Below, piece after piece: positions 26,529 to 51,405 of a DNA stretch of 64,000 bases; positions within the stretch are counted from its first letter, which is position 1; the number at the start of each line of letters is the position of its first letter. The position numbers and the translations under genes were made by a program. Origin of the DNA: Bacteroidota bacterium (lineage in GTDB: Bacteria; Bacteroidota; Ignavibacteria; Ignavibacteriales; Melioribacteraceae); the NCBI GenBank assembly GCA_021824635.1, contig JAKAKD010000054.1, positions 1 to 64,000 of the forward strand, read 5' to 3'. The notes beneath the pieces are model-generated. The model was given only the letters and a program-made list of their open reading frames with translations, was not told the origin of the DNA and did no database searches.

Positions 26529-26873
26529 TTATTGATTTTCTGATAGATGTTTGGTTAGTGCTTCTTTCAGCGGAGTGAGTTCGTTTTGTATAATGAACCA
26601 GATGATTGTAATATCTATCTTAAAGTACTCGTGAACGATCCGATTTCTAATTCCTCTTAACTTTTGCCATGGGATATCTGTAAACTTTTTCTGTATTTCT
26701 AATGGGATATTTTTTGAAGCTTCACCAATAATTTCAATGTTTCTTACAATACCATCTATCACTAGGGAATTAATTGAAAAATCTTCAAATGATAGATTCT
26801 TTGTATAGCTCTGAATCTTTTCTATACTTTCCAGAATATCTTCGAATAGCAATTTCCAATCTCTGTTAGACAT
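26529..26873 (-). CDS. hepT: HepT-like HEPN ribonuclease toxin (DUF86)
   Basis: The 114-residue helical protein contains the HEPN active-site motif R-x4-H-x-Y (RNRIVHEY, near residue 79), the catalytic signature of HepT RNase toxins. In known HepT/MntA modules the toxin cuts RNA, and its Tyr in this motif is AMPylated by MntA to inactivate it. Both the Arg/His and the Tyr are present here, so the protein appears intact. It overlaps mntA by eight bases, downstream of it, in the usual order. No biochemical evidence for this copy. Confidence 0.85.
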   Translation of the reverse strand: MSNRDWKLLFEDILESIEKIQSYTKNLSFEDFSINSLVIDGIVRNIEIIGEASKNIPLEIQKKFTDIPWQKLRGIRNRIVHEYFKIDITIIWFIIQNELTPLKEALTKHLSENQ

Positions 26874-27156
26874 AGATCAAATCTTGTTTAATGTAATCCA
26901 ACATTTTGGGTTTGAGTGCATTTGGAGTAACAATATCAACCTTAATGCCAAGTATATCTTCTAGCTCATCACCGAGAAGTACGAAGTCTAGCCCTATCGG
27001 TTTTTCCAGTTCAACAAGAATATCAACATCGCTAAACTCTGTAGCTTCACCTCTTGCTACCGAACCAAAGATTCCTAATTGCCTAACATTATATTTTTCT
27101 TTGATACTTTGCTGGTGTAATTCGAGCAATGATTTTATTTCCGATAACTTTTTCAT
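26866..27156 (-). CDS. mntA: MntA-like minimal nucleotidyltransferase antitoxin
   Basis: The 96-residue protein has the nucleotidyltransferase motif GS-x10-D-x-D (from GSVARG to SDVDILVE, residues 31-46), exact for MNT-domain proteins. A later acidic region can provide the third carboxylate. It would AMPylate and so neutralise the HepT toxin encoded immediately after it. The pair sits between the HAD gene and a degraded intergenic patch, consistent with a mobile accessory module. Confidence 0.85.
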   Translation of the reverse strand: MKKLSEIKSLLELHQQSIKEKYNVRQLGIFGSVARGEATEFSDVDILVELEKPIGLDFVLLGDELEDILGIKVDIVTPNALKPKMLDYIKQDLIYV

Positions 27157-27646
27157 ATTACTTTCTACGGCTGTTAATTCAAAAATAAGAAATATTTGGG
27201 TGGTTTGATGACAAAATTTTATTCCAGCCTCAGCGTCCGTGTAGTTATCAATGCTTATACTTTGAGGAGATTTCCATTTTATGTATCACGGAATGGTCCG
27301 TGACAACGGAGTAATCCATCCTTATAAATATCCTCATCAATCATTGGCAAATGAATTCCATAACCGGAAGATGATATTTTAAAATTATTTTTTTGATGTT
27401 CATCAACAAAAGCAAGTTTTGTGAAAAATTATATAAGCACAAATTCGTATTCGCTATCATAATACATAACTTCAGTTTATCGTTTGTCACAGAATTAAGA
27501 TTGCTGTATTTCTTTATAAAAGAATTAAGGGTAGTTCTAAAAACTTCTCACGAAGTGATGGATACCCAAAAATTCTTCGCGTACTTTGCGAAATCTTTGC
27601 GCTCTTTGTGTTTAGGTTTTCAATAAGATGGTTTTTAGAACCACCC
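27157..27646. other. Gene-poor accessory patch of 490 bases
   Basis: No intact gene is supported here. The stretch holds the upstream region of mntA, a small hairpin (TCACGG at 27286 with CCGTGA at 27298, 6-base loop), a decayed DUF2442-like reading frame and most of a MITE-like element, the last two listed separately. Short open frames on both strands have no family features. Confidence 0.6.
27279..27428 (-). pseudogene. Remnant of a DUF2442-like protein gene (C-terminal part)
   Basis: A minus-strand frame without a start codon encodes about 49 residues ending at a TAA at 27279. Its core GYGIHLPMIDEDIYKDGLL matches the G-x-GIHW-x-x-[LI]DEDI-x-x-x-GLL end of DUF2442 proteins, which often sit beside DUF4160 or toxin-antitoxin genes. 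An in-frame stop at 27429-27431 and lack of the N-terminal half indicate a broken gene. The family match is by memory of the pattern. Confidence 0.5.
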
Positions 27647-27650
27647 TTAA
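27525..27650. mobile_element. MITE-like element, 126 bp with 20-bp terminal inverted repeats
   Basis: TTAAGGGTAGTTCTAAAAAC at 27525-27544 is inverted at 27631-27650 with a single mismatch. The 86-base interior has no gene but contains a cluster of CTTTGCG/GCAAAG-type motifs (CTTCGCGTACTTTGCG, then CTTTGCGCTCTTTGTG). TTAA at both tips is either the outer four bases of the repeat or a TTAA target duplication. The right end overlaps the stop codon of the outer-membrane barrel gene by four bases. No transposase is present, so it would depend on a transposase elsewhere. Confidence 0.7.
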
Positions 27651-29254
27651 AATCGTTTTGAAAGTGTAAAATATAATCTGCTAAAAGTGGTTTGGTCTTG
27701 AAACGTACTTTCATAGCTCGCTGAAATGAATACCGTATTAAATATTCTCCAGGATAAATCAATATTACCAATTTGCTGAAAAAAATTAAACTGGTCGGAT
27801 GGGAATTTATAATCAATTCGTTTATAGCCGACACCAAGATTAATAACACCATTAAATAAATCCTTTGCAAGACTTGCGCCATAGTAATTCCCATTAACAT
27901 AACCGGATTCAATTTTATTATAGTTTATGTTAAGAGATAAATAAATTAATGGTATTTGTAGATAGCTCAGATTGACTCCATAATTTTTCGATGGTCGTGG
28001 ATCGTCTTTACTGAAACGATATCCATAATTAACGCCTACCCAGATATAATTAAGCGGACGTAGATTGACTCTAACAGAAAATCCTTGCCGTGTAGCAGAC
28101 TCAAGAACACTATCTGCAAATGTCTTGAACGTTTCATAATAAATCACATTTTTACGCGCATCATAAGAAGCGCTTAGTCCAACCCAACTGCTTGGATTGT
28201 AAGAACACATTGCAAACAGACTTGTCATGTCAAAGGTGTTTTGGTTAATTCCCATCTTTCTCTTGAATAGATCGAACTCAGAGGAAACAAAAAAACCTAA
28301 GCTTTGAGATAAATTATTCGAATGCTGGAAGTAAAGAAATCTTCTATCTGTCTTGAAATTGTTAGTCTGTTCAAAAACTCCAACAGTATTTTGCATTGTA
28401 ACACTACCCAGACTATCGCTTCTGAAAAGATAACCGCCGTACTCAAACATTTTCAGATCATAACCATAATCAGAAAAACTTGGATGCGAGCCGGCTATCA
28501 CTCCAAATACAAACTTCTTTGCTGTCGTCTCAAATTGAAGTCCATCAATCGCTCCAAGACTCGAGGTTTTGAAATTGATCTTTCTTCCTAACGTAATTTT
28601 TGTTGTTGGAGTGAAATCATACCTAAGAGCTAAGTCATAAATTTTCAGCACATCCCCAAGATTGCTTTTAACCTCGTTCCATTGGTCAGCTCGATAAGAA
28701 AAGTTAACGTAAGAGGAAAAAAATATTGGAGACTCAGCAATCGTATCGGCATTAAATGAAAGATTCATCCGCCAATATTGAAAATCCGGCGAACTTGGTC
28801 CGTTAGATTTATTTGTAAAAGATGATACTGAAATATTTCCGTCAGTACGTTTGAAGAATTTGGGAGTGCTTTTAATCTGTCCCATAATAGGAGTTACTGA
28901 AACTGCTTCTGTTTGACTCTTTACTATTTCTCTATTCTTTTCGTTGTTTAATAACGGGCTCTTTTTAATAACTGCTTTTACTTCTTCATTAACTTTGAAT
29001 TGGTAGCTGGATAGAGCAACACCGGAACAAGAGTTTGAGGAGATAAACTGAACAACGATTGCCGGTTTTAATGCACCGCTAACGGAGAGAAATAAAGTAT
29101 CGTTCTTGCTGATTCCATTAGTGTTTTCAAACCGGACATAAATATTCTGCGAAGTCACGAATGAAATCCGACCGACCTTTTCATTTTCAGTAATGTTCTG
29201 AGCATAAATATGAAATGCACTAATCAGGATAAGAATGAGAAAACTTTTATTCAT
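27647..29254 (-). CDS. Outer-membrane beta-barrel porin of the multiheme cytochrome operon
   Basis: The 535-residue protein has a signal peptide (SAFHIYAQN), a small N-terminal beta domain (about residues 25-95, SH3-like in pattern), a linker, and then about 370 residues of alternating amphipathic strands. It ends LYFTLSKRF, with the terminal Phe used by the BAM machinery. Length and strand number suggest a barrel of more than 16 strands. It follows the 34-heme cytochrome gene by three bases. In porin-cytochrome conduits such a barrel encloses a multiheme cytochrome that carries electrons across the outer membrane; I infer this role from context. Its stop codon lies at the edge of a MITE-like element. 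Confidence 0.78.
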   Translation of the reverse strand: MNKSFLILILISAFHIYAQNITENEKVGRISFVTSQNIYVRFENTNGISKNDTLFLSVSGALKPAIVVQFISSNSCSGVALSSYQFKVNEEVKAVIKKSPLLNNEKNREIVKSQTEAVSVTPIMGQIKSTPKFFKRTDGNISVSSFTNKSNGPSSPDFQYWRMNLSFNADTIAESPIFFSSYVNFSYRADQWNEVKSNLGDVLKIYDLALRYDFTPTTKITLGRKINFKTSSLGAIDGLQFETTAKKFVFGVIAGSHPSFSDYGYDLKMFEYGGYLFRSDSLGSVTMQNTVGVFEQTNNFKTDRRFLYFQHSNNLSQSLGFFVSSEFDLFKRKMGINQNTFDMTSLFAMCSYNPSSWVGLSASYDARKNVIYYETFKTFADSVLESATRQGFSVRVNLRPLNYIWVGVNYGYRFSKDDPRPSKNYGVNLSYLQIPLIYLSLNINYNKIESGYVNGNYYGASLAKDLFNGVINLGVGYKRIDYKFPSDQFNFFQQIGNIDLSWRIFNTVFISASYESTFQDQTTFSRLYFTLSKRF

Positions 29255-29257
29255 TTG

Positions 29258-31813
29258 TTAATTCTTTCCAGTTGGATGACATGTGTAACAAGCTGTTGAT
29301 AGATAAACATAATTGTTCACTCCGCTATGCTTCGAGTTCATAGATGCTTGATCATGCTCATGGCAATTGATACACTCAAACACTTTATAGTTTGTTTGAT
29401 CCGTATGGCAATCTGTGCAAAGAGTCCACTGACCACTATGCGAACCAGAATAAATTGGGAAATATTGTCCGTCATGATTAAAAGTTGAGGGCTTCCAAAC
29501 GTTTTGTGTATGGCACTGCTCGCAAGTAAGCGGAAATTTAGCCGTAGCATGATTAGGATTGGTTACGCTATTGTAATCTGTCAAATGGCAGCTAACACAT
29601 TGCGGGTGTTTCGTATTGTAATTACCTGCATGGCAGCTTGAACATTGGTTTGCAATTTGTAAATGCGCACCAAGAATTAGATAGTAATTATTATGAATTG
29701 AAATTGGAAATGCAGCCGGTTTCCATCCCGGGTCGGTTGTATGGCATTGTTCACATGAAGTAGGAATATTAATCGCACCATGATTTGGATTAGTAGTATT
29801 CTGGAAATTTGATAAATGGCAACTCGAACAAACAGTTGGTGTTCCTTTCAATGTAGTGGTATGACAATTATTACAGTTAACCGAAATGTGCGCACCTGTT
29901 AATTGAAAAGCTGTAGTCGCATGATTAAATGTTACACTCGTCCAATCAGTTGTGTTGTGGCATTGCTCGCAAGTTTGAGGATATCCTTGCGATACATGAT
30001 TTGGCGCCGATGTATATTTTGATTGATGGCATGAATAACAGAGTGTCGGTGTTCCTGCAAAGACCGATGTATGACATGAATTACATTGAACAGTTGTATG
30101 ACTTCCTACTAATGGGAATTTAGTCAATGCGTGATTAAACGTTACGCTCTTCCAATCTGTTGTGTTGTGGCATTGTTCGCAAGTTTGAGGGTATCCTTGC
30201 GAAACATGATTCGGTGCTGTTGTATATTTTGATTGATGACATGCATAACACAAATTAGATGTTCCTGCTAACTTAGTAGTATGACATGAACTACAATTAA
30301 CTGTAGCGTGAGCGCCTAAAAGCGGAAAGTTAGTTGACGTATGATTAAAACTAATTTGTTTCCAGTCCACCGGAGAATGGCACTGTTTACAATCTTGCGA
30401 ATAATTTTGCGCACTATGATTTGGTGCAGATACATATTTAGATTGATGACATGAAACGCATTGAGTAGGAGTTCCAGCATAACCTGTTTGATGACACTGT
30501 GAACATGCAGCAGTTGTATGCGCGCCAAGCAACGGAAAATTTGTAAGTGAATGATTTATTCCACCTTCTTTGGTTCCTCTTGGATGACATGTATAACAAA
30601 CATTGCTTTGATAAGCATATCCATTAATACCGCTGTGCTTAGAATCCATATCTGTTTTTGCATGCTCATGGCAATTAATACATTCAAACACTTTGAAATT
30701 AGATTGGTTCGTATGACATTCCGAACAAGTGTTCCATTTGCCGCCGTGATTTCCGGAATAAATCGGGAAATATTTATTGTCATGATCAAAAGTTGATGGC
30801 TTCCATACAGTTTGTGAATGACAAGTTACGCAGTCAGTTGAGAATTGCGCTGCTTTATGATTTGGATTTACTGAAGCATCATAATTCTGCTGGTGACAGC
30901 TTACACATTGTCTCGCGGTTTGATTGTAACCGGTAGAATGACACTTACTGCAATCGTTTCTAATTAAGTTATGAGCACCTAACAGAGGATAAACAAGATC
31001 ATGATTAGTAAAAGAAGCCGGTTTCCATGCACCCGCGCTTATTGTGTGGCATTGCTTGCAATCTTTTGAGAAATTTAATTTAACATGATTTGGCGAAGTA
31101 ACGGATTCATAGTTTTTCTGATGACAAGTGTAACAATCTTGCGATAAACCCTTATAGCTGCCTTGAGAATGACAAGTAAAACAATTTGCTATGTTATGAG
31201 CGCCGGTAAGCGGAAAGAAATCATGCGTAACTGAAGTTGCAGACCAACTGAATGAAGTAAAATCATGACACTGCTGACAGTCAGTAGAATAATTTGCTTT
31301 TATATGATTCGGATCGTTTGTCGAAGCATAAGTTGAAGCGTGGCAATCGTAACATCTAACACCGATCGGTTCAAACTTCAAACTGGAAGAAAATTTATGG
31401 CACTGCTGACAATCGGCTTTAGCATGATTACCAAGCAATGGAAATTTTCCCATCCGGTGAAGATCAATTATGTTTTCAATAATCCAAGTTCTTGAATCAT
31501 GACAACGAACGCAATTCTTACCAACAGTATTTTCATGAATATCCGTATGGCAATCCGAACAATTATCTTTCCCTTTTTTATCGCTGAAGACAAGGCTTTC
31601 ATGGCAGGCTGTACACTTAACGGTTTGATGCTGACCTTTTAATTCAAATCCGGTTTCACTGTGATGGAAAAGAATTTTGGCGGGATTCACAGTCCATCCG
31701 TCAACTGTATGACAGTCTTGGCAATCACGTTTAAAATTTTTCCCGTGCGGAGATTGCCCGTTGCAAATAGAAAGTGATAATAAAATTAGAAATACTAATG
31801 ACAGAGAGCGCAT
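29258..31813 (-). CDS. 34-heme c-type cytochrome
   Basis: The 851-residue exported protein has a signal peptide (SLVFLILLSLSICNGQ) and I count 34 CxxCH heme-attachment motifs, one per 25 residues. The chain is built from repeating units of about 70 residues with three hemes each: CxQCH-x-W-x-FNH-x-FPLxGAH, then CxxCH-x-GT, then CxxCHxxxY-x-PNH. Conserved GAH, FNH and PNH histidines are likely distal heme ligands. A block beginning FPIYSGNH and ending CYTCHP occurs twice (near residues 360 and 800). The ATG overlaps the end of the 20-heme gene by 19 bases behind GGTGAGG. Probably a long molecular wire linked to the co-encoded barrel. Confidence 0.92.
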   Translation of the reverse strand: MRSLSLVFLILLSLSICNGQSPHGKNFKRDCQDCHTVDGWTVNPAKILFHHSETGFELKGQHQTVKCTACHESLVFSDKKGKDNCSDCHTDIHENTVGKNCVRCHDSRTWIIENIIDLHRMGKFPLLGNHAKADCQQCHKFSSSLKFEPIGVRCYDCHASTYASTNDPNHIKANYSTDCQQCHDFTSFSWSATSVTHDFFPLTGAHNIANCFTCHSQGSYKGLSQDCYTCHQKNYESVTSPNHVKLNFSKDCKQCHTISAGAWKPASFTNHDLVYPLLGAHNLIRNDCSKCHSTGYNQTARQCVSCHQQNYDASVNPNHKAAQFSTDCVTCHSQTVWKPSTFDHDNKYFPIYSGNHGGKWNTCSECHTNQSNFKVFECINCHEHAKTDMDSKHSGINGYAYQSNVCYTCHPRGTKEGGINHSLTNFPLLGAHTTAACSQCHQTGYAGTPTQCVSCHQSKYVSAPNHSAQNYSQDCKQCHSPVDWKQISFNHTSTNFPLLGAHATVNCSSCHTTKLAGTSNLCYACHQSKYTTAPNHVSQGYPQTCEQCHNTTDWKSVTFNHALTKFPLVGSHTTVQCNSCHTSVFAGTPTLCYSCHQSKYTSAPNHVSQGYPQTCEQCHNTTDWTSVTFNHATTAFQLTGAHISVNCNNCHTTTLKGTPTVCSSCHLSNFQNTTNPNHGAINIPTSCEQCHTTDPGWKPAAFPISIHNNYYLILGAHLQIANQCSSCHAGNYNTKHPQCVSCHLTDYNSVTNPNHATAKFPLTCEQCHTQNVWKPSTFNHDGQYFPIYSGSHSGQWTLCTDCHTDQTNYKVFECINCHEHDQASMNSKHSGVNNYVYLSTACYTCHPTGKN
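29941..30240. repeat. 210-bp tandem coding repeat inside the 34-heme cytochrome gene
   Basis: Bases 29941-30030 and 30151-30240 match at 81 of 90 positions by my alignment, with an offset of exactly 210 bases (70 codons). They encode successive three-heme units containing NHVSQGYPQTCEQCHNTTDW. The similarity at DNA level points to recent unit duplication within the gene. Confidence 0.75.
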
Positions 31814-33381
31814 TTTACCTCACCAAATTTATACTTGATGTATTTTCCTTTCTCATCAACTACTTGTTTATGGCATTTGTAACAATCTACTTTAGAATGC
31901 GCTCCATTTAATGGAAACGATGTATTGTTATGATCAAAGAGTTCCGGCTTCCAGTTATTATATTGATGACAACTCTGACATAATACAATACCGTTTTTTG
32001 CGAACTGTCCGGCATGTACATCTTTATGACATCCAACGCATTCTGATTTTTTTGTAAAATAAATATTAACGCTATTAATACCTTTGTTACTCGTGTGACA
32101 TTTAGTACAACTTCGTTTTTGGTGAACACCCAATAAAACAAAATTTGTTTTACTGTGGTCAAAATTTACTTCATTCCATCTTTCTGTTGTGTGACATGCC
32201 GTACAACTTTTTTCTCCTGTATATTTAACCGGAACAGAACCACCATGAACATCTTTGTGGCAATCAACGCAATCCCTTCTCTCAATTTTGAAATTCCATT
32301 TTTCGTTTTTCTTGTGGCAGCTTTGACAAGGGATAGCTAAATGAGCACCATTCAAAATAAAATTACTCTTTAAGTGACGATCAATGGTATAAGATGTAAA
32401 ATTAAATCCATCAAGCGAATGACATGAATTGCAGTCAGTCTGTGATCCATTTTTAGTGAACTCTCCTTTGTGATAATCTAAATGACAACTAATACATTTG
32501 TCAAATTTTGGTCTGGTGTTTAAACCGTTTTTATGACATGCCTTACAATCAACTGAAGTGTGCTTCCCCACCAAAGGATAATTTGTTTTTCCATGATCGA
32601 AGCTTCCCAAATTCTTAATAACATGGAATGATTCTGTAACGTGACAGGTTGCGCACTTATCTCCAAACTTTCCTTTATGAAAATCCTTGTGGCAAGAAGC
32701 GCATGATGTGAATTCAATTCCTTTGAACCTTTGGAATTTTTTCCCATTCTTTGTTTCGATTGAATGGCACTTGATACACTCAACTTTTTGATGCGCGCCT
32801 GTTAAATCATACTTTGTAGAACTATGATTAAATTTTGGAGCCGGACGGAAAGCATCTGTTCCATGACAATCTTGACAGCTATTTCCCAAACTTCCTTGAT
32901 GATAATCTTGGTGGCAAGAGTTACATGAAGTCTTTAACCCTAAAAATGTTCCTTTGTGTTTCTTGTATTTCGCGTCCGTCATAAAATCCGGCTTATGGCA
33001 ATCGAAACAATCTATTTTACCATGCTTGCCTGTTAGTTGAAACGATGTTTTGGAATGATCAAATGTCTTGGGATTGATATTAACAATTCTAAAGTTTCTT
33101 CCGTGATGTTCACTATGGCATTGAACGCAATTTTTATTTCTTACGTCAGAACTTGAATGGAATCCCTTATTCTCTTTTTGAAGTTGTGATATTTCTGAGT
33201 GGCAAGCTAAACATTCATTATTACGAACTTGACTGCCAATGTGATGGCATTTTGTGCAATTGCTCATCCCCTCTAAATGAGAATGCAACGAAGATAGATC
33301 TCCGGGAGAAATTTGTCCCAATAACTTTGAACTCAGAGTTACCAAGAATAATATTGCAAATGTTAGTCTTGATGTTTTAAT
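31795..33381 (-). CDS. 20-heme c-type cytochrome, probable ATT start
   Basis: I count 20 CxxCH motifs in about 528 residues. The units alternate CxxCH-x-FDHxxTxFxLxGxH and CxxCHxDxHxG, with the last heme motif (CALCH) directly at the C-terminus. Conventional starts give only a TTG at 33345, which cuts the signal peptide in half. The frame continues upstream as KTSRLTFAILFLVTLSSKLLGQ (shown here from its Lys; residues 2-23), a full Sec signal, preceded by ATT at 33381. GGAGAGG lies four bases before this ATT. I therefore annotate ATT as the start. It is probably a periplasmic electron carrier between the inner-membrane cytochrome b and the 34-heme protein. Confidence 0.88.
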   Translation of the reverse strand: MKTSRLTFAILFLVTLSSKLLGQISPGDLSSLHSHLEGMSNCTKCHHIGSQVRNNECLACHSEISQLQKENKGFHSSSDVRNKNCVQCHSEHHGRNFRIVNINPKTFDHSKTSFQLTGKHGKIDCFDCHKPDFMTDAKYKKHKGTFLGLKTSCNSCHQDYHQGSLGNSCQDCHGTDAFRPAPKFNHSSTKYDLTGAHQKVECIKCHSIETKNGKKFQRFKGIEFTSCASCHKDFHKGKFGDKCATCHVTESFHVIKNLGSFDHGKTNYPLVGKHTSVDCKACHKNGLNTRPKFDKCISCHLDYHKGEFTKNGSQTDCNSCHSLDGFNFTSYTIDRHLKSNFILNGAHLAIPCQSCHKKNEKWNFKIERRDCVDCHKDVHGGSVPVKYTGEKSCTACHTTERWNEVNFDHSKTNFVLLGVHQKRSCTKCHTSNKGINSVNIYFTKKSECVGCHKDVHAGQFAKNGIVLCQSCHQYNNWKPELFDHNNTSFPLNGAHSKVDCYKCHKQVVDEKGKYIKYKFGEVKCALCH

Positions 33382-34709
33382 ACCGCCTCTCCGTATTTTT
33401 TAGTAATTCTAATTCCGGCATTAGTTAGAAAATCATTAGGAAGTTCGCCGCCGGCCAGAATGAATACTAAATCATTTTTAATTTCCTTTTCCAAAGTAAT
33501 ACCATCTTTTTCAAACATTATTTTAACAGCTTTCTCGGATATAGCCGTTACATTGGATTTAAATATGATATCAATTTTTCTTTCATCTGTAGCGTTTTTA
33601 ATATTCTCAAAATTCTTCGGTTTAAGTCTAGAAAATGAATCACCTCTATACGAAATTGTAATATTATTGTTTCCTTCTAATAATGCCAGCGCAGCTTCTA
33701 TTGCCGAATCTCCGCCGCCAACTACCAGAACATTTTGATTGCTTATCAATTCCGGCTCAATAAGTCTGTAAGATACTTTTTCCAATCCTTCCCCTTCAAC
33801 ACCCAATTTTCTTGGAGTGCCGCGCCGGCCAATTGCCAAAAGAACCGCGTTTGTTGTAATTGTCTTTTTATTTGTTTTAACTACAAAATAGTATTCATGT
33901 TTTTCGATAGAAAGGACTCTTTCATTCTCTTGAATTGAAATTTTATTCTTCATTAACACTTCATTCCAGAGAGTTAACAATTCTATCTTAGTCATCTCGG
34001 TGTATTTCACTTTGCCGTGCAAAGGAAGATGCATCGGTGCGGTCATAATTATTTTCTTTCTCGGAAATGAATAGACTGTTCCACCCAGACTGTCTTGTTC
34101 AAGTGTAATGGTTCTTAGTTCTTTTTCCTTAGCCGCCAAAGATGCCGAAATCCCAGCCGGACCAGCGCCAATGATCACAATATCATATTCAGATTTCGGG
34201 GCGCGCGATAAATTTTTAGCAATATTATCAACAGCCTGCCTGCCTTGTGTTACGGCATTTTTTATTAGGCCCATTCCGCCAAGTTCTCCAGCGATAAAAA
34301 TTCCCTTTACATTCGTTTCGAATTCATGGCTGACATGGGGAAGATCAACACCTCTTTTTTCAGTTCCTATAACAAGTGAAATAGCACCAAGCGGACATGA
34401 ATGAAAACATGCGCCGTGTCCTACACAACGTGATGCATTGATAGTCGCGGCTTTTCCATCAATCAATCCGAGAATATCTTTTTCCGGACAAGCTGCAACA
34501 CACGCAGCACTGCCAATACAGACATCCAGATTGACAACAGGATGAAGAGATACCGGTTCATGAAATCCAAGTTGTTTGGCTCTCTCAATTTTTTCTTTAA
34601 CTGTCTTAGATTGCTTTTTCCCTTTTCTCAACTGAAAGTAGATCAGAAGAACAATCAATAAAACAACAACAGAGTAAGTAATAATATTTTCTATCAATAC
34701 TTCCATCAA
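33363..34709 (-). CDS. Membrane-anchored Fe-S/FAD pyridine-nucleotide oxidoreductase
   Basis: The 448-residue protein has one N-terminal helix (residues 11-27), a ferredoxin-like domain (about 60-110) and a thioredoxin-reductase-like FAD/NAD(P) domain. FAD binds at YDIVIIGAGPAGISAS and the nucleotide at VLVVGGGDSAIEAAL. Both ferredoxin motifs are short of one cysteine: C64-x5-C70-x3-C74-P has Ser67, and C95-x5-C101-x3-C105-P has His98 where the second Cys is normal. The clusters may be [3Fe-4S] or may use Ser/His ligands. No CxxC redox disulfide is visible in the flavin domain, so it is not a true thioredoxin reductase. It probably passes NAD(P)H electrons to the adjacent cytochrome b. Confidence 0.82.
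   Translation of the reverse strand: MMEVLIENIITYSVVVLLIVLLIYFQLRKGKKQSKTVKEKIERAKQLGFHEPVSLHPVVNLDVCIGSAACVAACPEKDILGLIDGKAATINASRCVGHGACFHSCPLGAISLVIGTEKRGVDLPHVSHEFETNVKGIFIAGELGGMGLIKNAVTQGRQAVDNIAKNLSRAPKSEYDIVIIGAGPAGISASLAAKEKELRTITLEQDSLGGTVYSFPRKKIIMTAPMHLPLHGKVKYTEMTKIELLTLWNEVLMKNKISIQENERVLSIEKHEYYFVVKTNKKTITTNAVLLAIGRRGTPRKLGVEGEGLEKVSYRLIEPELISNQNVLVVGGGDSAIEAALALLEGNNNITISYRGDSFSRLKPKNFENIKNATDERKIDIIFKSNVTAISEKAVKIMFEKDGITLEKEIKNDLVFILAGGELPNDFLTNAGIRITKKYGEAVLKHQD
33382..33392 (-). promoter_or_regulatory. Shine-Dalgarno deciding the ATT start of the 20-heme cytochrome
   Basis: GGAGAGG (33392 to 33386 on the minus strand) plus a four-base spacer precedes the ATT at 33381. The next gene in the operon has the same layout: GGTGAGG, four bases, then ATG at 31813. 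In both cases the start overlaps the upstream gene by 19 bases. Confidence 0.65.
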
Positions 34710-34719
34710 CAGACACCTT

Positions 34720-35583
34720 TTAAAATATCCAGCGGTAACCGAACGCTACTGTAATTACCACATGAAGAATCATAATCAGAAGCATTACAATTGCAAACGG
34801 AAGATGAATTATGTGCCAATACCGGAACATCTCTTGAACTGAATTTAACAAACTAATTTTACGCGAAAGAATCAATTTTGATTTACTGATTTCAACTATT
34901 TGATTAATAGATTTTTCTGATATCTTCTCGCTTCTCAAATGAGTCTTCAATTCATTTAGGATTTTCTTATTTGCCATGTGATCTTTGACGGTGAGAGGAA
35001 TGATTGAAAACAAATTCGGGGATTTATAAACTTTTAACGATGCAAAGTGTTCCAACTTTGTCAGCAAAGAATTATCCATGTTGAATTCGTTTTTCAATTT
35101 TTCGCCAAAAGATTGGTTCAACATTTTAAGTTCTTCCATAGAATATTCATTTCCTCTTATTGAACGGGGAATCTGAACATATATAAATCTTCCTATAACA
35201 CCGCTAATAACAACCGCAACCATACTCCAGAAACTTATTGCTACAATTCCGCCAAACTTAAATGCTGTATGAAACAAGACTAGAACCGGACCCAAACTAC
35301 ATAAAAATATATGTAACTCAAGCCAATTTTTTATCGCTCCTACTCTTGCAAATGATTTCAGTCTCTTTCTAAGCATGTATAAAACTACGCCCACTAACAT
35401 CATGAACGAACCAATAATTCCCAAACCATGCCCTATAATTCCGCTTGGTTTCAAGATAGAATGAGACGGATGGAAAAATCTTTCCTCGTAGGGTGTGAGG
35501 TAATAACTATATCCTGCATATCCAAGATATACAAATGCCGTTATTCCAATTAGCAAGTAAAGCCAATGTTGTAGTTTAGTCAT
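34720..35583 (-). CDS. Five-helix diheme b-type cytochrome, ferric-reductase-like heme pattern
   Basis: The 287-residue membrane protein has helices near residues 7-27, 46-70, 86-107, 113-135 and 260-282, with a soluble loop of about 120 residues before the last. Helix 3 holds His91 and His105, and helix 5 holds His260 and His274. Both pairs are separated by exactly 13 residues. HX13H pairs in two helices are how ferric reductases, NADPH oxidases and relatives hold two stacked b hemes. His52 and His257 are also conserved-looking. It heads the five-gene operon and would move electrons across the inner membrane from the flavoprotein or quinol to the periplasmic cytochromes. No sequence family was recognised directly. 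Confidence 0.72.
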   Translation of the reverse strand: MTKLQHWLYLLIGITAFVYLGYAGYSYYLTPYEERFFHPSHSILKPSGIIGHGLGIIGSFMMLVGVVLYMLRKRLKSFARVGAIKNWLELHIFLCSLGPVLVLFHTAFKFGGIVAISFWSMVAVVISGVIGRFIYVQIPRSIRGNEYSMEELKMLNQSFGEKLKNEFNMDNSLLTKLEHFASLKVYKSPNLFSIIPLTVKDHMANKKILNELKTHLRSEKISEKSINQIVEISKSKLILSRKISLLNSVQEMFRYWHIIHLPFAIVMLLIMILHVVITVAFGYRWIF

Positions 35584-35724: not shown

Positions 35725-35751
35725 GAGCCGGACTAATTGATAATCCGGCTC
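35725..35751 (-). terminator. Terminator downstream of the metalloprotease gene
   Basis: GAGCCGGA at 35725-35732 pairs perfectly with TCCGGCTC at 35744-35751 around an 11-base loop. Read on the minus strand it is followed by TTTAATTTTAATT. It isolates the cytochrome operon from the metalloprotease gene upstream. Confidence 0.75.
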
Positions 35752-49287: not shown

Positions 49288-51405
49288 ATGTTCCGAAGAT
49301 TTACAACTTTAGTATTTGCTTTAGCATTAGTGAGTACTACGCTATTTGCGCAAACACTCTCTGTTACTCCCTACGGTGTTACGCCACGTGGTGTAGCCGT
49401 TTCAGCAACTGACATTTATACTTATCCTTACAACGGTTTAACAAATGTCGGCGTTGGAACACTATGCTATTTTCAAGCTTATTTTACAGGTGCAAAATTT
49501 ACAGCACCAACTTGGACATTAACGCGTAAAGCACCAGGTTCAGCCAACACAATTGGTACTGTAAAAGATCTTAAAAATGATTCAACACAAGTAGTTACTT
49601 TTACACCGGACAAACCTGGAACTTATGAAATTACTTTTACTGACGGAGCTTTCACAGGATCTGTTGTAATAAATGCTGCTAAATATGTTGGCGTTTATAA
49701 TACAGTAATTGATGGTACTGACACAGGACGTCAATGTAAAACTTGTCACTCTGATAAAGTAGCTGAGTGGGAAAAAACAGGTCACTCGACAATGTTTACA
49801 AGAGCAATGAACGGAACTCCAGGCCTTAGCGGTCCGGCAGATCATTACTCAGTAAATTGTATTGGTTGCCATACAACAGGTTTCGATAAAAATCCAACAG
49901 CAGTTAATAATGGTTTCGATGATATGACTTTTACCTATCCTACAGTTCTTGGAGCTGGAGTTTTTGATCAACTTAAAGTTCAATTCCCAGATGCAATACA
50001 GAGAGCAAATATTCAGTGTGAAAGCTGTCACGGTCCAGCAAGTGGACACCTTGGCAACACTTCAGATTCAAGAATGGTTGCAACTTTCGATGCAGCAGTT
50101 TGCGCTTACTGCCATGATTCTGGCACACACCACATTTTCCCGGAACAATTTAATGCTTCTTTACATGCTGTTGCAACTTCATACCCATCTGGCCCAGGGC
50201 ATGAATCTTGCGTACAATGCCACACCGGAAAAGGATTTGCTCAATTTGCGGGCGGCGTTCCAACAACCGATCCATATTTTGATGCTTCATATGCACCCAT
50301 TACTTGCTCTGCATGCCACGATCCACATGATGCAACAAATACTTTCCAATTAAGAAAAGTTGATTCGTTTATATATACATATAATTCTGCTGCACCAACC
50401 AGCCCTATCAAAACAAATGTTACAAATGCTGGAATGGGCACAATGTGTCTTAACTGCCATCATTCAAGAACAGAAGCTAACCAGGCATTGGCATCACCAA
50501 TCAATCTCCGTTTTGGTCCACACCATGGTCCACAGGGAGATATTTTATTAGCAAACAATATGTTAGAATTGGGTGGAGTTTCATTAAAAAAATCTAATCA
50601 TTATAGTTTTACACCAGATCTTTGTGTAACATGTCATATGTATAGCGGAAATGCTGTTGTTGGTACAACCGTAATGCAATGGGGCGGACACTCATTCAGT
50701 ATGAGTACATTTAAGAAAAGCCCAGATGGACTTTTCTTGATAGATAAGACAACAGGAAGAAGAATTACTGATCAAGATAATATGCAAGCTTGCGCTCAAT
50801 GCCATGGCACTACTTTTGGTACAAGCTTTAGCGATGTAAAATTCTTCTACAACGGTGTTGGCGATCTTGATAATAATGGTACAATACAAGGATTGCAGGA
50901 TGAAGTAGCTGGTATGATTGCTAAGATTTTTGCACAAATGCCAAAGACTTCAACAGGTGCAATGGCTACTCCAAGTTCAACATGGACAACCACACAATTG
51001 AAAGCTTATTGGAATGCAATTACTGCTCAAGAAGATAAGAGCGGTGGTATTCACAATCCTAAATATGTTGTAACAGCGTTACTGGGAGCGATGAAATCTT
51101 TAGGAATTGCAACTGGTGTTGAGAAAGAAGAAACTGTTCCAACACAGTATGTTGTTTATCAGAACTATCCAAATCCATTCAACCCAACAACAAACATTAA
51201 GTTTGCTTTACCGAATAGCGGTCATGTTAAGTTAACAATTTATGATGCTCTTGGTAGAGAAGTTGAAACTCTTGTTAACAGCGAATTAGTAGCTGGTACT
51301 CATAATGTAGAATGGACAGCTAAGAATATGGCTTCCGGTATTTATCTCTATAGAATTGAAGCTGGCAATTTTGTAAAAGTTAACAAAATGCTTCTTGTAA
51401 AATAG
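49288..51405 (+). CDS. Nine-heme c-type cytochrome exported by T9SS
   Basis: The 705-residue protein has a signal peptide (FALALVSTTLFAQT), an Ig-like beta domain (about 25-130) and a heme region (140-520) with nine CxxCH motifs, such as CKTCH, CIGCH, CESCHGPASGH, CAYCH and CAQCH. The ESCHGPASGH element recalls cytochrome c554/OTR-type proteins. The last 85 residues are a T9SS type A domain (YPNPFNPTTNIKFALP ... GIYLYRIEAG). Heme attachment must occur in the periplasm before T9SS carries the folded protein to the surface. Strong Shine-Dalgarno and a perfect terminator frame a single-gene unit. Likely a surface electron-transfer protein. Confidence 0.92.
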   Translation: MFRRFTTLVFALALVSTTLFAQTLSVTPYGVTPRGVAVSATDIYTYPYNGLTNVGVGTLCYFQAYFTGAKFTAPTWTLTRKAPGSANTIGTVKDLKNDSTQVVTFTPDKPGTYEITFTDGAFTGSVVINAAKYVGVYNTVIDGTDTGRQCKTCHSDKVAEWEKTGHSTMFTRAMNGTPGLSGPADHYSVNCIGCHTTGFDKNPTAVNNGFDDMTFTYPTVLGAGVFDQLKVQFPDAIQRANIQCESCHGPASGHLGNTSDSRMVATFDAAVCAYCHDSGTHHIFPEQFNASLHAVATSYPSGPGHESCVQCHTGKGFAQFAGGVPTTDPYFDASYAPITCSACHDPHDATNTFQLRKVDSFIYTYNSAAPTSPIKTNVTNAGMGTMCLNCHHSRTEANQALASPINLRFGPHHGPQGDILLANNMLELGGVSLKKSNHYSFTPDLCVTCHMYSGNAVVGTTVMQWGGHSFSMSTFKKSPDGLFLIDKTTGRRITDQDNMQACAQCHGTTFGTSFSDVKFFYNGVGDLDNNGTIQGLQDEVAGMIAKIFAQMPKTSTGAMATPSSTWTTTQLKAYWNAITAQEDKSGGIHNPKYVVTALLGAMKSLGIATGVEKEETVPTQYVVYQNYPNPFNPTTNIKFALPNSGHVKLTIYDALGREVETLVNSELVAGTHNVEWTAKNMASGIYLYRIEAGNFVKVNKMLLVK

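What the first reader, a model, noticed from the sequence alone, without database searches (positions are those of the whole stretch)
27647..35583. Five-gene operon that looks like a complete cytosol-to-exterior electron conduit with 54 c-type hemes
In transcription order the operon encodes a diheme cytochrome b, a membrane-anchored Fe-S/FAD oxidoreductase, a 20-heme cytochrome, a 34-heme cytochrome and an outer-membrane barrel. Gaps are 3 to 10 bases or 19-base overlaps. Known porin-cytochrome conduits pair a barrel with a multiheme cytochrome. Having the inner-membrane cytochrome b and a nucleotide-oxidising flavoprotein in the same transcript would give an entire path in one unit. Motif counts are seen directly; extracellular electron transfer is inferred.
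Basis: partly seen in the sequence, partly recalled or inferred. Interest (0 to 1): 0.85.

Follow-up and report, generated by a model that had tools for sequence, protein, structure and literature searches.

The report
Extendable cytochrome wire operon with flavoprotein
A five-gene set in an Ignavibacteria-like bacterium appears to encode a complete electrical line from inside the cell to outside it, and across many related bacteria the outermost 'wire' protein grows and shrinks in exact steps of three hemes while the inner parts stay fixed.

Summary
On the minus strand, 27647-35583 encodes a diheme-type cytochrome b, a membrane-anchored Fe-S/FAD protein, 20-heme and 34-heme cytochromes and an outer-membrane barrel: one tight unit, 54 CXXCH. 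Homologues confirm the unit: the order is kept in the taxonomic order, and more distant Bacteroidota keep the same genes with FAD last. Cytb and barrel share 46 of 96 relatives; each occurs alone in only three. A full copy lies on plasmid pEMTOL02 of the cultured Emticicia oligotrophica.

The core is not a new kind: anatomy, gene order and paired WX3HX13H motifs (46/46) match the 'PCC3' clusters of He et al. 2017. New, as far as I could find: (i) an NAD(P)H-type Fe-S/FAD subunit as a constant part; (ii) an outer cytochrome that changes length in three-heme steps (60 of 63 counts are 1 mod 3, 10 to 70 hemes) by duplicating a middle ~70-residue unit between fixed ends, while the inner one stays at 20; (iii) a conserved AUU start for the inner cytochrome.

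Best explanation: a PCC3-like extracellular electron conduit fed from cytosolic NAD(P)H through a NOX-like cytochrome b. Direction and donor are inferred, not shown.

The parts
34720..35583 (-). Inner-membrane diheme-type cytochrome b (287 aa). W87-x3-H91-x13-H105 and W256-x3-H260-x13-H274, SG127xxG; by the positive-inside rule H91/H260 lie on the cytosolic and H105/H274 on the periplasmic side, with a ~110-residue cytosolic loop about 140-250 (topology inferred).
   Evidence: (motif twice in 46 of 46 homologues); weak DUF4405 in Pfam
33363..34709 (-). Membrane-anchored Fe-S/FAD oxidoreductase: one N-terminal TM helix, ferredoxin-like domain with two three-Cys motifs (C64,C70,C74; C95,C101,C105) plus invariant H98, then a YpdA/thioredoxin-reductase-like FAD/NAD(P)H domain (GGGDSA, YR-x5-R). 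ATG start at 34706 is likely.
   Evidence: Fer4_10; Pyr_redox_3 5e-45; YpdA 172 bits, below cut-off; residues in 68 homologues; closest solved: YpdA/Bdr 7a7b
31795..33381 (-). Inner (probably periplasmic) 20-heme cytochrome, with Sec-type signal peptide (M)KTSRLTFAILFLVTLSSKLLGQ before ISPGDL if started at AUU
   Evidence: 20 hemes in 59 of 64 intact homologues, 23 in three, and two 19-counts that come from too-late ORF starts
33379..33381 (-). Proposed AUU start codon of the 20-heme cytochrome
   Evidence: ATT-AAA-(A/G)CA in about 19 homologues; in L018, L021, L025 and L033 no ATG/GTG/TTG exists between the in-frame stop and the signal cleavage site
33386..33392 (-). Shine-Dalgarno-like GGAGAGG before the AUU
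   Evidence: read from sequence; the bases also code for the end of the FAD protein, so their conservation is not independent
29258..31813 (-). Outer 34-heme cytochrome with Sec-type signal peptide: fixed N-terminal part, middle repeats, fixed C-terminal part; 1 + 11x3 hemes
29876..30505 (-). Variable middle block: three 70-residue, three-heme units here (units 6-8); five in the close relative G001, eleven in G045
   Evidence: unit-by-unit identities; tandem repeat of 210 bp at 29918-30349
27647..29254 (-). Outer-membrane beta-barrel: signal peptide, small N-terminal beta domain (24-96), low-confidence linker (100-135), predicted 22-stranded barrel (137-534)
   Evidence: (AF2 pLDDT 83.7, pTM 0.62); no Pfam/NCBIfam family
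35725..35751 (-). Terminator-like stem (11 pairs) of the upstream gene, separating it from the operon
27575..27593 (-). Weak terminator-like stem behind the barrel gene
   Evidence: 8 sites found in the region against 5.4 expected, so weak

Best explanation
The operon encodes a porin-cytochrome conduit of the PCC3 plan with its own cytosolic input. Electrons from NAD(P)H enter the FAD and Fe-S domains of the anchored oxidoreductase, cross the inner membrane through two b hemes of a NOX/ferric-reductase-like cytochrome b, run along a 20-heme cytochrome of fixed length across the periplasm, and leave through a long cytochrome held by the 22-stranded barrel. The outer cytochrome has fixed ends and a middle of repeated three-heme units, whose number evolves quickly by in-frame duplication, so its reach outside the cell is adjustable. 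Shown: gene set, order, motifs, heme-site counts, repeat pattern, predicted barrel. Inferred: heme loading, NAD(P)H as donor, outward direction, surface location of the long cytochrome, and the final acceptor.
For: Gene set conserved as a unit: order cytb-FAD-MHC20-MHC-barrel in 35 loci, and FAD last in 15 more distant Bacteroidota loci. Cytb and barrel share 46 of 96 relatives and each is alone in only three. The cytb carries the two WX3HX13H motifs and SGxxG that He et al. 2017 (PMC5566968) give for the PCC3/PCC4 inner-membrane protein and link to ferric reductase/NOX. Flavin input recurs with this cytb family: plasmid cassettes pair a homologous cytb and a 7-heme cytochrome with a non-homologous FNR-type NAD/FAD/2Fe-2S protein. 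The inner cytochrome is almost always 20 hemes while the outer one spans 10-70, as expected for a bridge of set length and a free outer end. Outer heme counts are 1 mod 3 in 60 of 63, and only middle units are duplicated, some pairs 97-99% identical. The barrel is wide, without a plug domain of its own; MtrB is among the Foldseek matches (6r2q_B, rank 50).
Against: No expression, redox-potential or activity data. Quinol as the donor to cytb, as proposed for PCC3, is not excluded. The 20-heme model was poor (pLDDT 70, pTM 0.35, no PDB match), so wire length is not modelled. No PCC3 protein could be fetched for a direct homology test. No lipobox or secretion signal explains how the outer cytochrome reaches the surface. 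PCC3 in Sideroxydans ES-1 was down on Fe(II) (PMC8788666), so the natural partner of such conduits is unknown.
Confidence: 0.58

Rival explanations
1. Same conduit, but electrons enter from the menaquinol pool at the cytochrome b, and the Fe-S/FAD protein has a side role (redox sensing, repair or branching).
For: He et al. 2017 model the PCC3 inner-membrane protein as quinone-linked, and PCC3 is reported there without a flavoprotein.
Against: FAD gene present in every operon copy whose contig reaches far enough, in two different positions; cofactor residues kept in 68 of 68; an unrelated flavoprotein is paired with homologous cytb elsewhere.
Confidence: 0.2
2. Inward conduit: electrons from an extracellular donor (Fe(II), a partner cell, a cathode) run in and reduce NAD(P)+ or quinone.
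For: PCC3 was proposed for Fe(II) oxidation; multiheme wires are generally reversible (established knowledge); the flavoprotein could run in reverse.
Against: Uphill to NAD(P)H for most donors unless driven; nothing in the operon shows direction.
Confidence: 0.14
3. Not primarily respiration: the outer wire stores charge or reduces a specific toxic or nutrient compound at the surface.
For: Up to 70 hemes in one protein; a capacitor role was suggested for such proteins in PMC7399161; a copy sits in Emticicia, an aerobe by my own knowledge; related porin-less cassettes sit in copper-resistance regions.
Against: A cytosol-linked input and an outer-membrane barrel point to net transfer across the envelope, not storage alone.
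Confidence: 0.08

Closest known systems
PCC3 porin-cytochrome gene cluster (He et al. 2017, PMC5566968; Gallionellaceae, PMC10734462)
   Same: Porin, large outer cytochrome (median 34 hemes, repeats, variable), inner cytochrome of about 21 hemes, ~300 aa inner-membrane protein with two WX3HX13H and SGxxG; described there as a path spanning the whole envelope.
   Different: PCC3 is reported as four genes in Proteobacteria, without an Fe-S/FAD or TPR gene; porins mostly larger (up to 42 strands predicted; 22 here); inner cytochrome 21/24/27 hemes in Gallionellaceae, 20 or 23 here.
OmbB-OmaB-OmcB type Pcc (Geobacter; IALB_1837-1840 of Ignavibacterium album, PMC4245776)
   Same: Barrel of 18-22 strands with multiheme cytochromes, also in Ignavibacteria.
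   Different: 5-14 and 1-15 heme cytochromes, no cytochrome b plus flavoprotein unit reported; porin homology not tested directly here.
MtrCAB / MtoAB
   Same: Cytochrome held in a wide barrel; weak DmsE/MtrA-family similarity of both cytochromes (TIGR03508, 41-43 bits, cut-off 192); MtrB among Foldseek matches.
   Different: 10-heme cytochromes, larger barrel (28 predicted strands, PMC4245776), input from CymA-type cytochromes.
Plasmid cassettes: FNR-type flavoprotein + cytb + 7-heme cytochrome (+DUF1622) in metal-resistance regions
   Same: Cytb and cytochrome similar by tblastn (about E 1e-7 and 1e-12); NAD(P)H-flavin input.
   Different: No porin, no long cytochrome, unrelated flavoprotein (NAD_binding_1/FAD_binding_6/Fer2).
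NOX / ferric reductase (FRD) and YpdA
   Same: HX13H diheme spacing on two helices (per He et al. 2017); YpdA-like flavin domain.
   Different: Here the membrane heme part and the flavin part are separate subunits; no Pfam FRD match; YpdA score below cut-off.

Membership tests
PCC3 | Inner-membrane protein ~300 aa with two WX3HX13H motifs and SGxxG | tested here: met
   287 aa; both motifs in 46 of 46 homologues, SGxxG present, against the text
PCC3 | Inner cytochrome of about 21 hemes and larger, variable outer cytochrome with repeats, few residues per heme | tested here: met
   20 and 34 hemes; 25.7 residues per heme over outer homologues; repeats
PCC3 | Outer-membrane barrel in the same cluster | tested here: met
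   22-strand barrel, pLDDT 83.7
PCC3 | Sequence homology to the proteobacterial PCC3 proteins | not testable with these tools
   No PCC3 record reachable: genome scan used, search cannot be centred on Proteobacteria; plasmid hits were porin-less cassettes and Emticicia only
PCC3 | Four-gene content without flavoprotein | tested here: not met
   Fe-S/FAD gene constant here; hence 'variant of', not 'is a' PCC3
OmbB-type Pcc | Small cytochrome pair (5-14 and up to 15 hemes) with porin | tested here: not met
   20 and 34 hemes, with cytb and FAD in the unit
MtrA/DmsE | Decaheme DmsE family member over the curated cut-off | tested here: not met
   41-43 bits against 192
YpdA bacillithiol disulfide reductase | NCBIfam TIGR04018 over cut-off | tested here: not met
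   172.5 bits against 339.9: relative, not member
Extracellular electron conduit (function) | Electron exchange with an extracellular substrate | not testable with these tools
   needs physiology or electrochemistry

The most novel reading that the evidence does not exclude
A quinone-independent, NADPH-driven electron export line, in effect a bacterial NADPH oxidase whose acceptor is a wire, in which a fixed 20-heme bridge spans the periplasm and the extracellular wire length (10+3n hemes) is a trait tuned by recombination of three-heme modules and partly spread by plasmid.
Probability: 0.35. Interest if true: 0.82.

Novelty: new variant of a known kind. Interest (0 to 1): 0.62.

Why it matters
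It links scattered PCC3-type clusters to a concrete candidate for the cytosolic donor and shows them to be common in Bacteroidota, including a cultured isolate where they sit on a plasmid and can be tested. The three-heme quantum with fixed ends gives a natural length series (10 to 70 hemes in one protein family), which makes the open question of how far and how fast single-protein heme wires conduct directly testable. The contrast between a fixed inner and a variable outer wire is itself a prediction about where each sits in the envelope.

Tried and rejected
PDB sequence searches with both cytochromes found nothing. The AF2 model of the 20-heme protein was too weak to measure length and matched nothing. 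Chance heme counts as the explanation of the mod-3 pattern rejected: 54/63 by CXXCH alone, 60/63 with CX3-4CH counted; the exceptions are two proteins of one genome (L049) and a partial ORF (L120). The binomial p (1e-17) ignores kinship and is not used as a probability. TTG start of the 20-heme gene rejected because it removes the start of the signal peptide and four homologues have no ATG/GTG/TTG there at all. Paper searches for a flavoprotein-bearing cluster of this kind found none, but the library lacks subscription papers and preprints.

Full report
Observation. The five minus-strand genes at 27647-35583 are present exactly as described. CXXCH counts are 20 and 34, none in the other three. 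Pfam and NCBIfam give Fer4 plus Pyr_redox_3 for the second gene, c3/c7-type cytochrome matches for the two cytochromes, only a weak DUF4405 match for cytb, and no family for the barrel. Operon limits are supported by a strong terminator-like stem upstream and a weak one downstream.

Conservation. The cytb was found in 49 of 96 relatives. In the regions fetched around these hits the order cytb, FAD, 20-heme, large cytochrome, barrel is kept almost wherever the contig reaches far enough; about half also have a membrane-anchored TPR protein (~200 aa) behind cytb, or in a few cases behind the barrel. A barrel profile hits 49 of the same 96 genomes, 46 of them shared with cytb. The three cytb-only genomes are fragmentary or end at a contig edge (G011, G055, G085); of the barrel-only ones, G009 and G029 are incomplete and G081 is a remnant with stops. 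G059 keeps only decayed ends of the operon and in G070 it is split. In 395 Bacteroidota genomes the cytb profile hits 40. Outside the order most loci have the FAD gene last (cytb-(TPR)-20-heme-large-barrel-FAD), a different arrangement of the same parts. In a FAD tree those form their own groups, while Emticicia, G216 and several Bacteroidetes MAGs nest inside the Ignavibacteria type (support 0.91 for their subclade), which suggests transfer; the Emticicia copy is on plasmid pEMTOL02 behind a ccsA/ResB-type cytochrome maturation gene.

Components. Cytb has W-x3-H-x13-H twice in 46 of 46 homologues, with SGxxG. This is the signature that He et al. 2017 report for PCC3/PCC4 inner-membrane proteins and compare to ferric reductase and NOX (PMC5566968). 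By the positive-inside rule (inference) one histidine pair lies on the cytosolic and one on the periplasmic side. In the Fe-S/FAD protein six cysteines, H98 and the Y-R-x5-R pattern are kept in all 68 homologues and GGGD-S/A-A in all; position 67, where a further cluster cysteine is expected, is Ser 45, Cys 15, Thr 7, Val 1, so the clusters may be unusual. Its flavin domain is closest to YpdA among solved structures; NADPH rather than NADH is a guess from that. The barrel is predicted with 22 strands, a small N-terminal beta domain and a low-confidence linker; best structural matches are 22-strand TonB-dependent receptors and ushers (Z 18-20 over about 340-360 residues), so it is wide and has no plug of its own.

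Wire lengths. The inner cytochrome has 20 hemes in 59 of 64 intact copies and 23 in Emticicia, G216 and G405. The outer one ranges from 10 to 70. Counting CX2-4CH, 60 of 63 counts are 1 mod 3; the apparent 24, 38 and 39 of the order contain CX3CH or CX4CH sites. Motif spacings show a fixed start (36,16-18,16,34,19,25,32,16,25) in most, n units of about (32-35,15,23-25), and a fixed end (35-37,15,28). Comparing the window with G001 and G045 unit by unit, units 1-5 and the last three match one to one, and only the 70-residue units between expand, from 3 to 5 to 11, with pairs up to 99% identical in G045. This is recent in-frame duplication of a three-heme module. Reports on Gallionellaceae give 21, 24 and 27 for the inner PCC3 cytochrome, again steps of three, and note that it could span the periplasm (PMC10734462). 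Variable heme numbers in homologous large cytochromes, with gain or loss in pairs or multiples, were noted before (PMC7399161), including Ignavibacteria genomes whose largest cytochromes have 40 and 33 motifs, but not the three-heme rule.

AUU start. In about 19 homologues the start that gives a full signal peptide for the inner cytochrome is ATT in ATT-AAA-(A/G)CA, in the window behind a GGAGAGG site, inside the end of the FAD gene; in four no ATG, GTG or TTG exists at all before the mature protein. The overlap with FAD coding also constrains these bases, so conservation alone does not prove it, but the missing alternatives argue for it.

Mechanism. The anatomy reads as cytosolic flavin and Fe-S input, transmembrane b hemes, periplasmic bridge, barrel and outer wire. 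Independent support for flavin input is that a related cytb with a 7-heme cytochrome is paired, in plasmid-borne metal-resistance regions of Proteobacteria and Spirosoma, with an unrelated FNR-type NAD/FAD/2Fe-2S protein. Quinol input, inward flow and charge storage stay open.

Verdict. A real, conserved operon; anatomically a PCC3-like conduit, filed as a new variant because the flavoprotein is a constant extra part and direct homology to PCC3 could not be tested.

Noticed in passing
window 49288-51405 (+): 705 aa protein with nine CXXCH motifs, the only other multiheme ORF in the window.
   Followed up: no
L040 and L126 (G070): The operon is split: cytb and TPR lie about 15 kb from FAD, cytochromes and barrel, with other ORFs between; the 20-heme gene there reads as a 16-heme ORF.
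   Followed up: partly
L127 (G059) and G081:C41:10028-10348: Decayed remnants of the operon (cytb with stops next to a barrel fragment), showing loss as a unit.
   Followed up: partly
L128 (G000:C31): Another cluster in the same genome: 4-heme, 16-heme, a cytochrome b-like 284 aa membrane protein, and a 14-heme protein at the contig edge; a 14-heme Pcc cytochrome is reported for Ignavibacterium album.
   Followed up: no
L044, L058-L061: Small paralogue pair: ~190 aa cytb plus 10-heme cytochrome, no porin seen beside it.
   Followed up: no
L072-L079 (plasmids): Three-gene cassettes of FNR-type flavoprotein, cytb and 7-heme cytochrome, often with DUF1622, in copper-resistance regions of Sphingobium, Legionella, Acetobacter, Methylophaga, Bradyrhizobium, Spirosoma; function unknown to me.
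   Followed up: partly
window 26529-27156 (-): HEPN (DUF86-like) and MNT nucleotidyltransferase-like gene pair, a common toxin-antitoxin type, judged by eye from the translations.
   Followed up: no
L049 (G094): Two outer cytochromes of 33 and 21 hemes (CX2-4CH), the only clear breach of the 1 mod 3 rule; both end differently from all others (CX4CH and a longer tail).
   Followed up: partly
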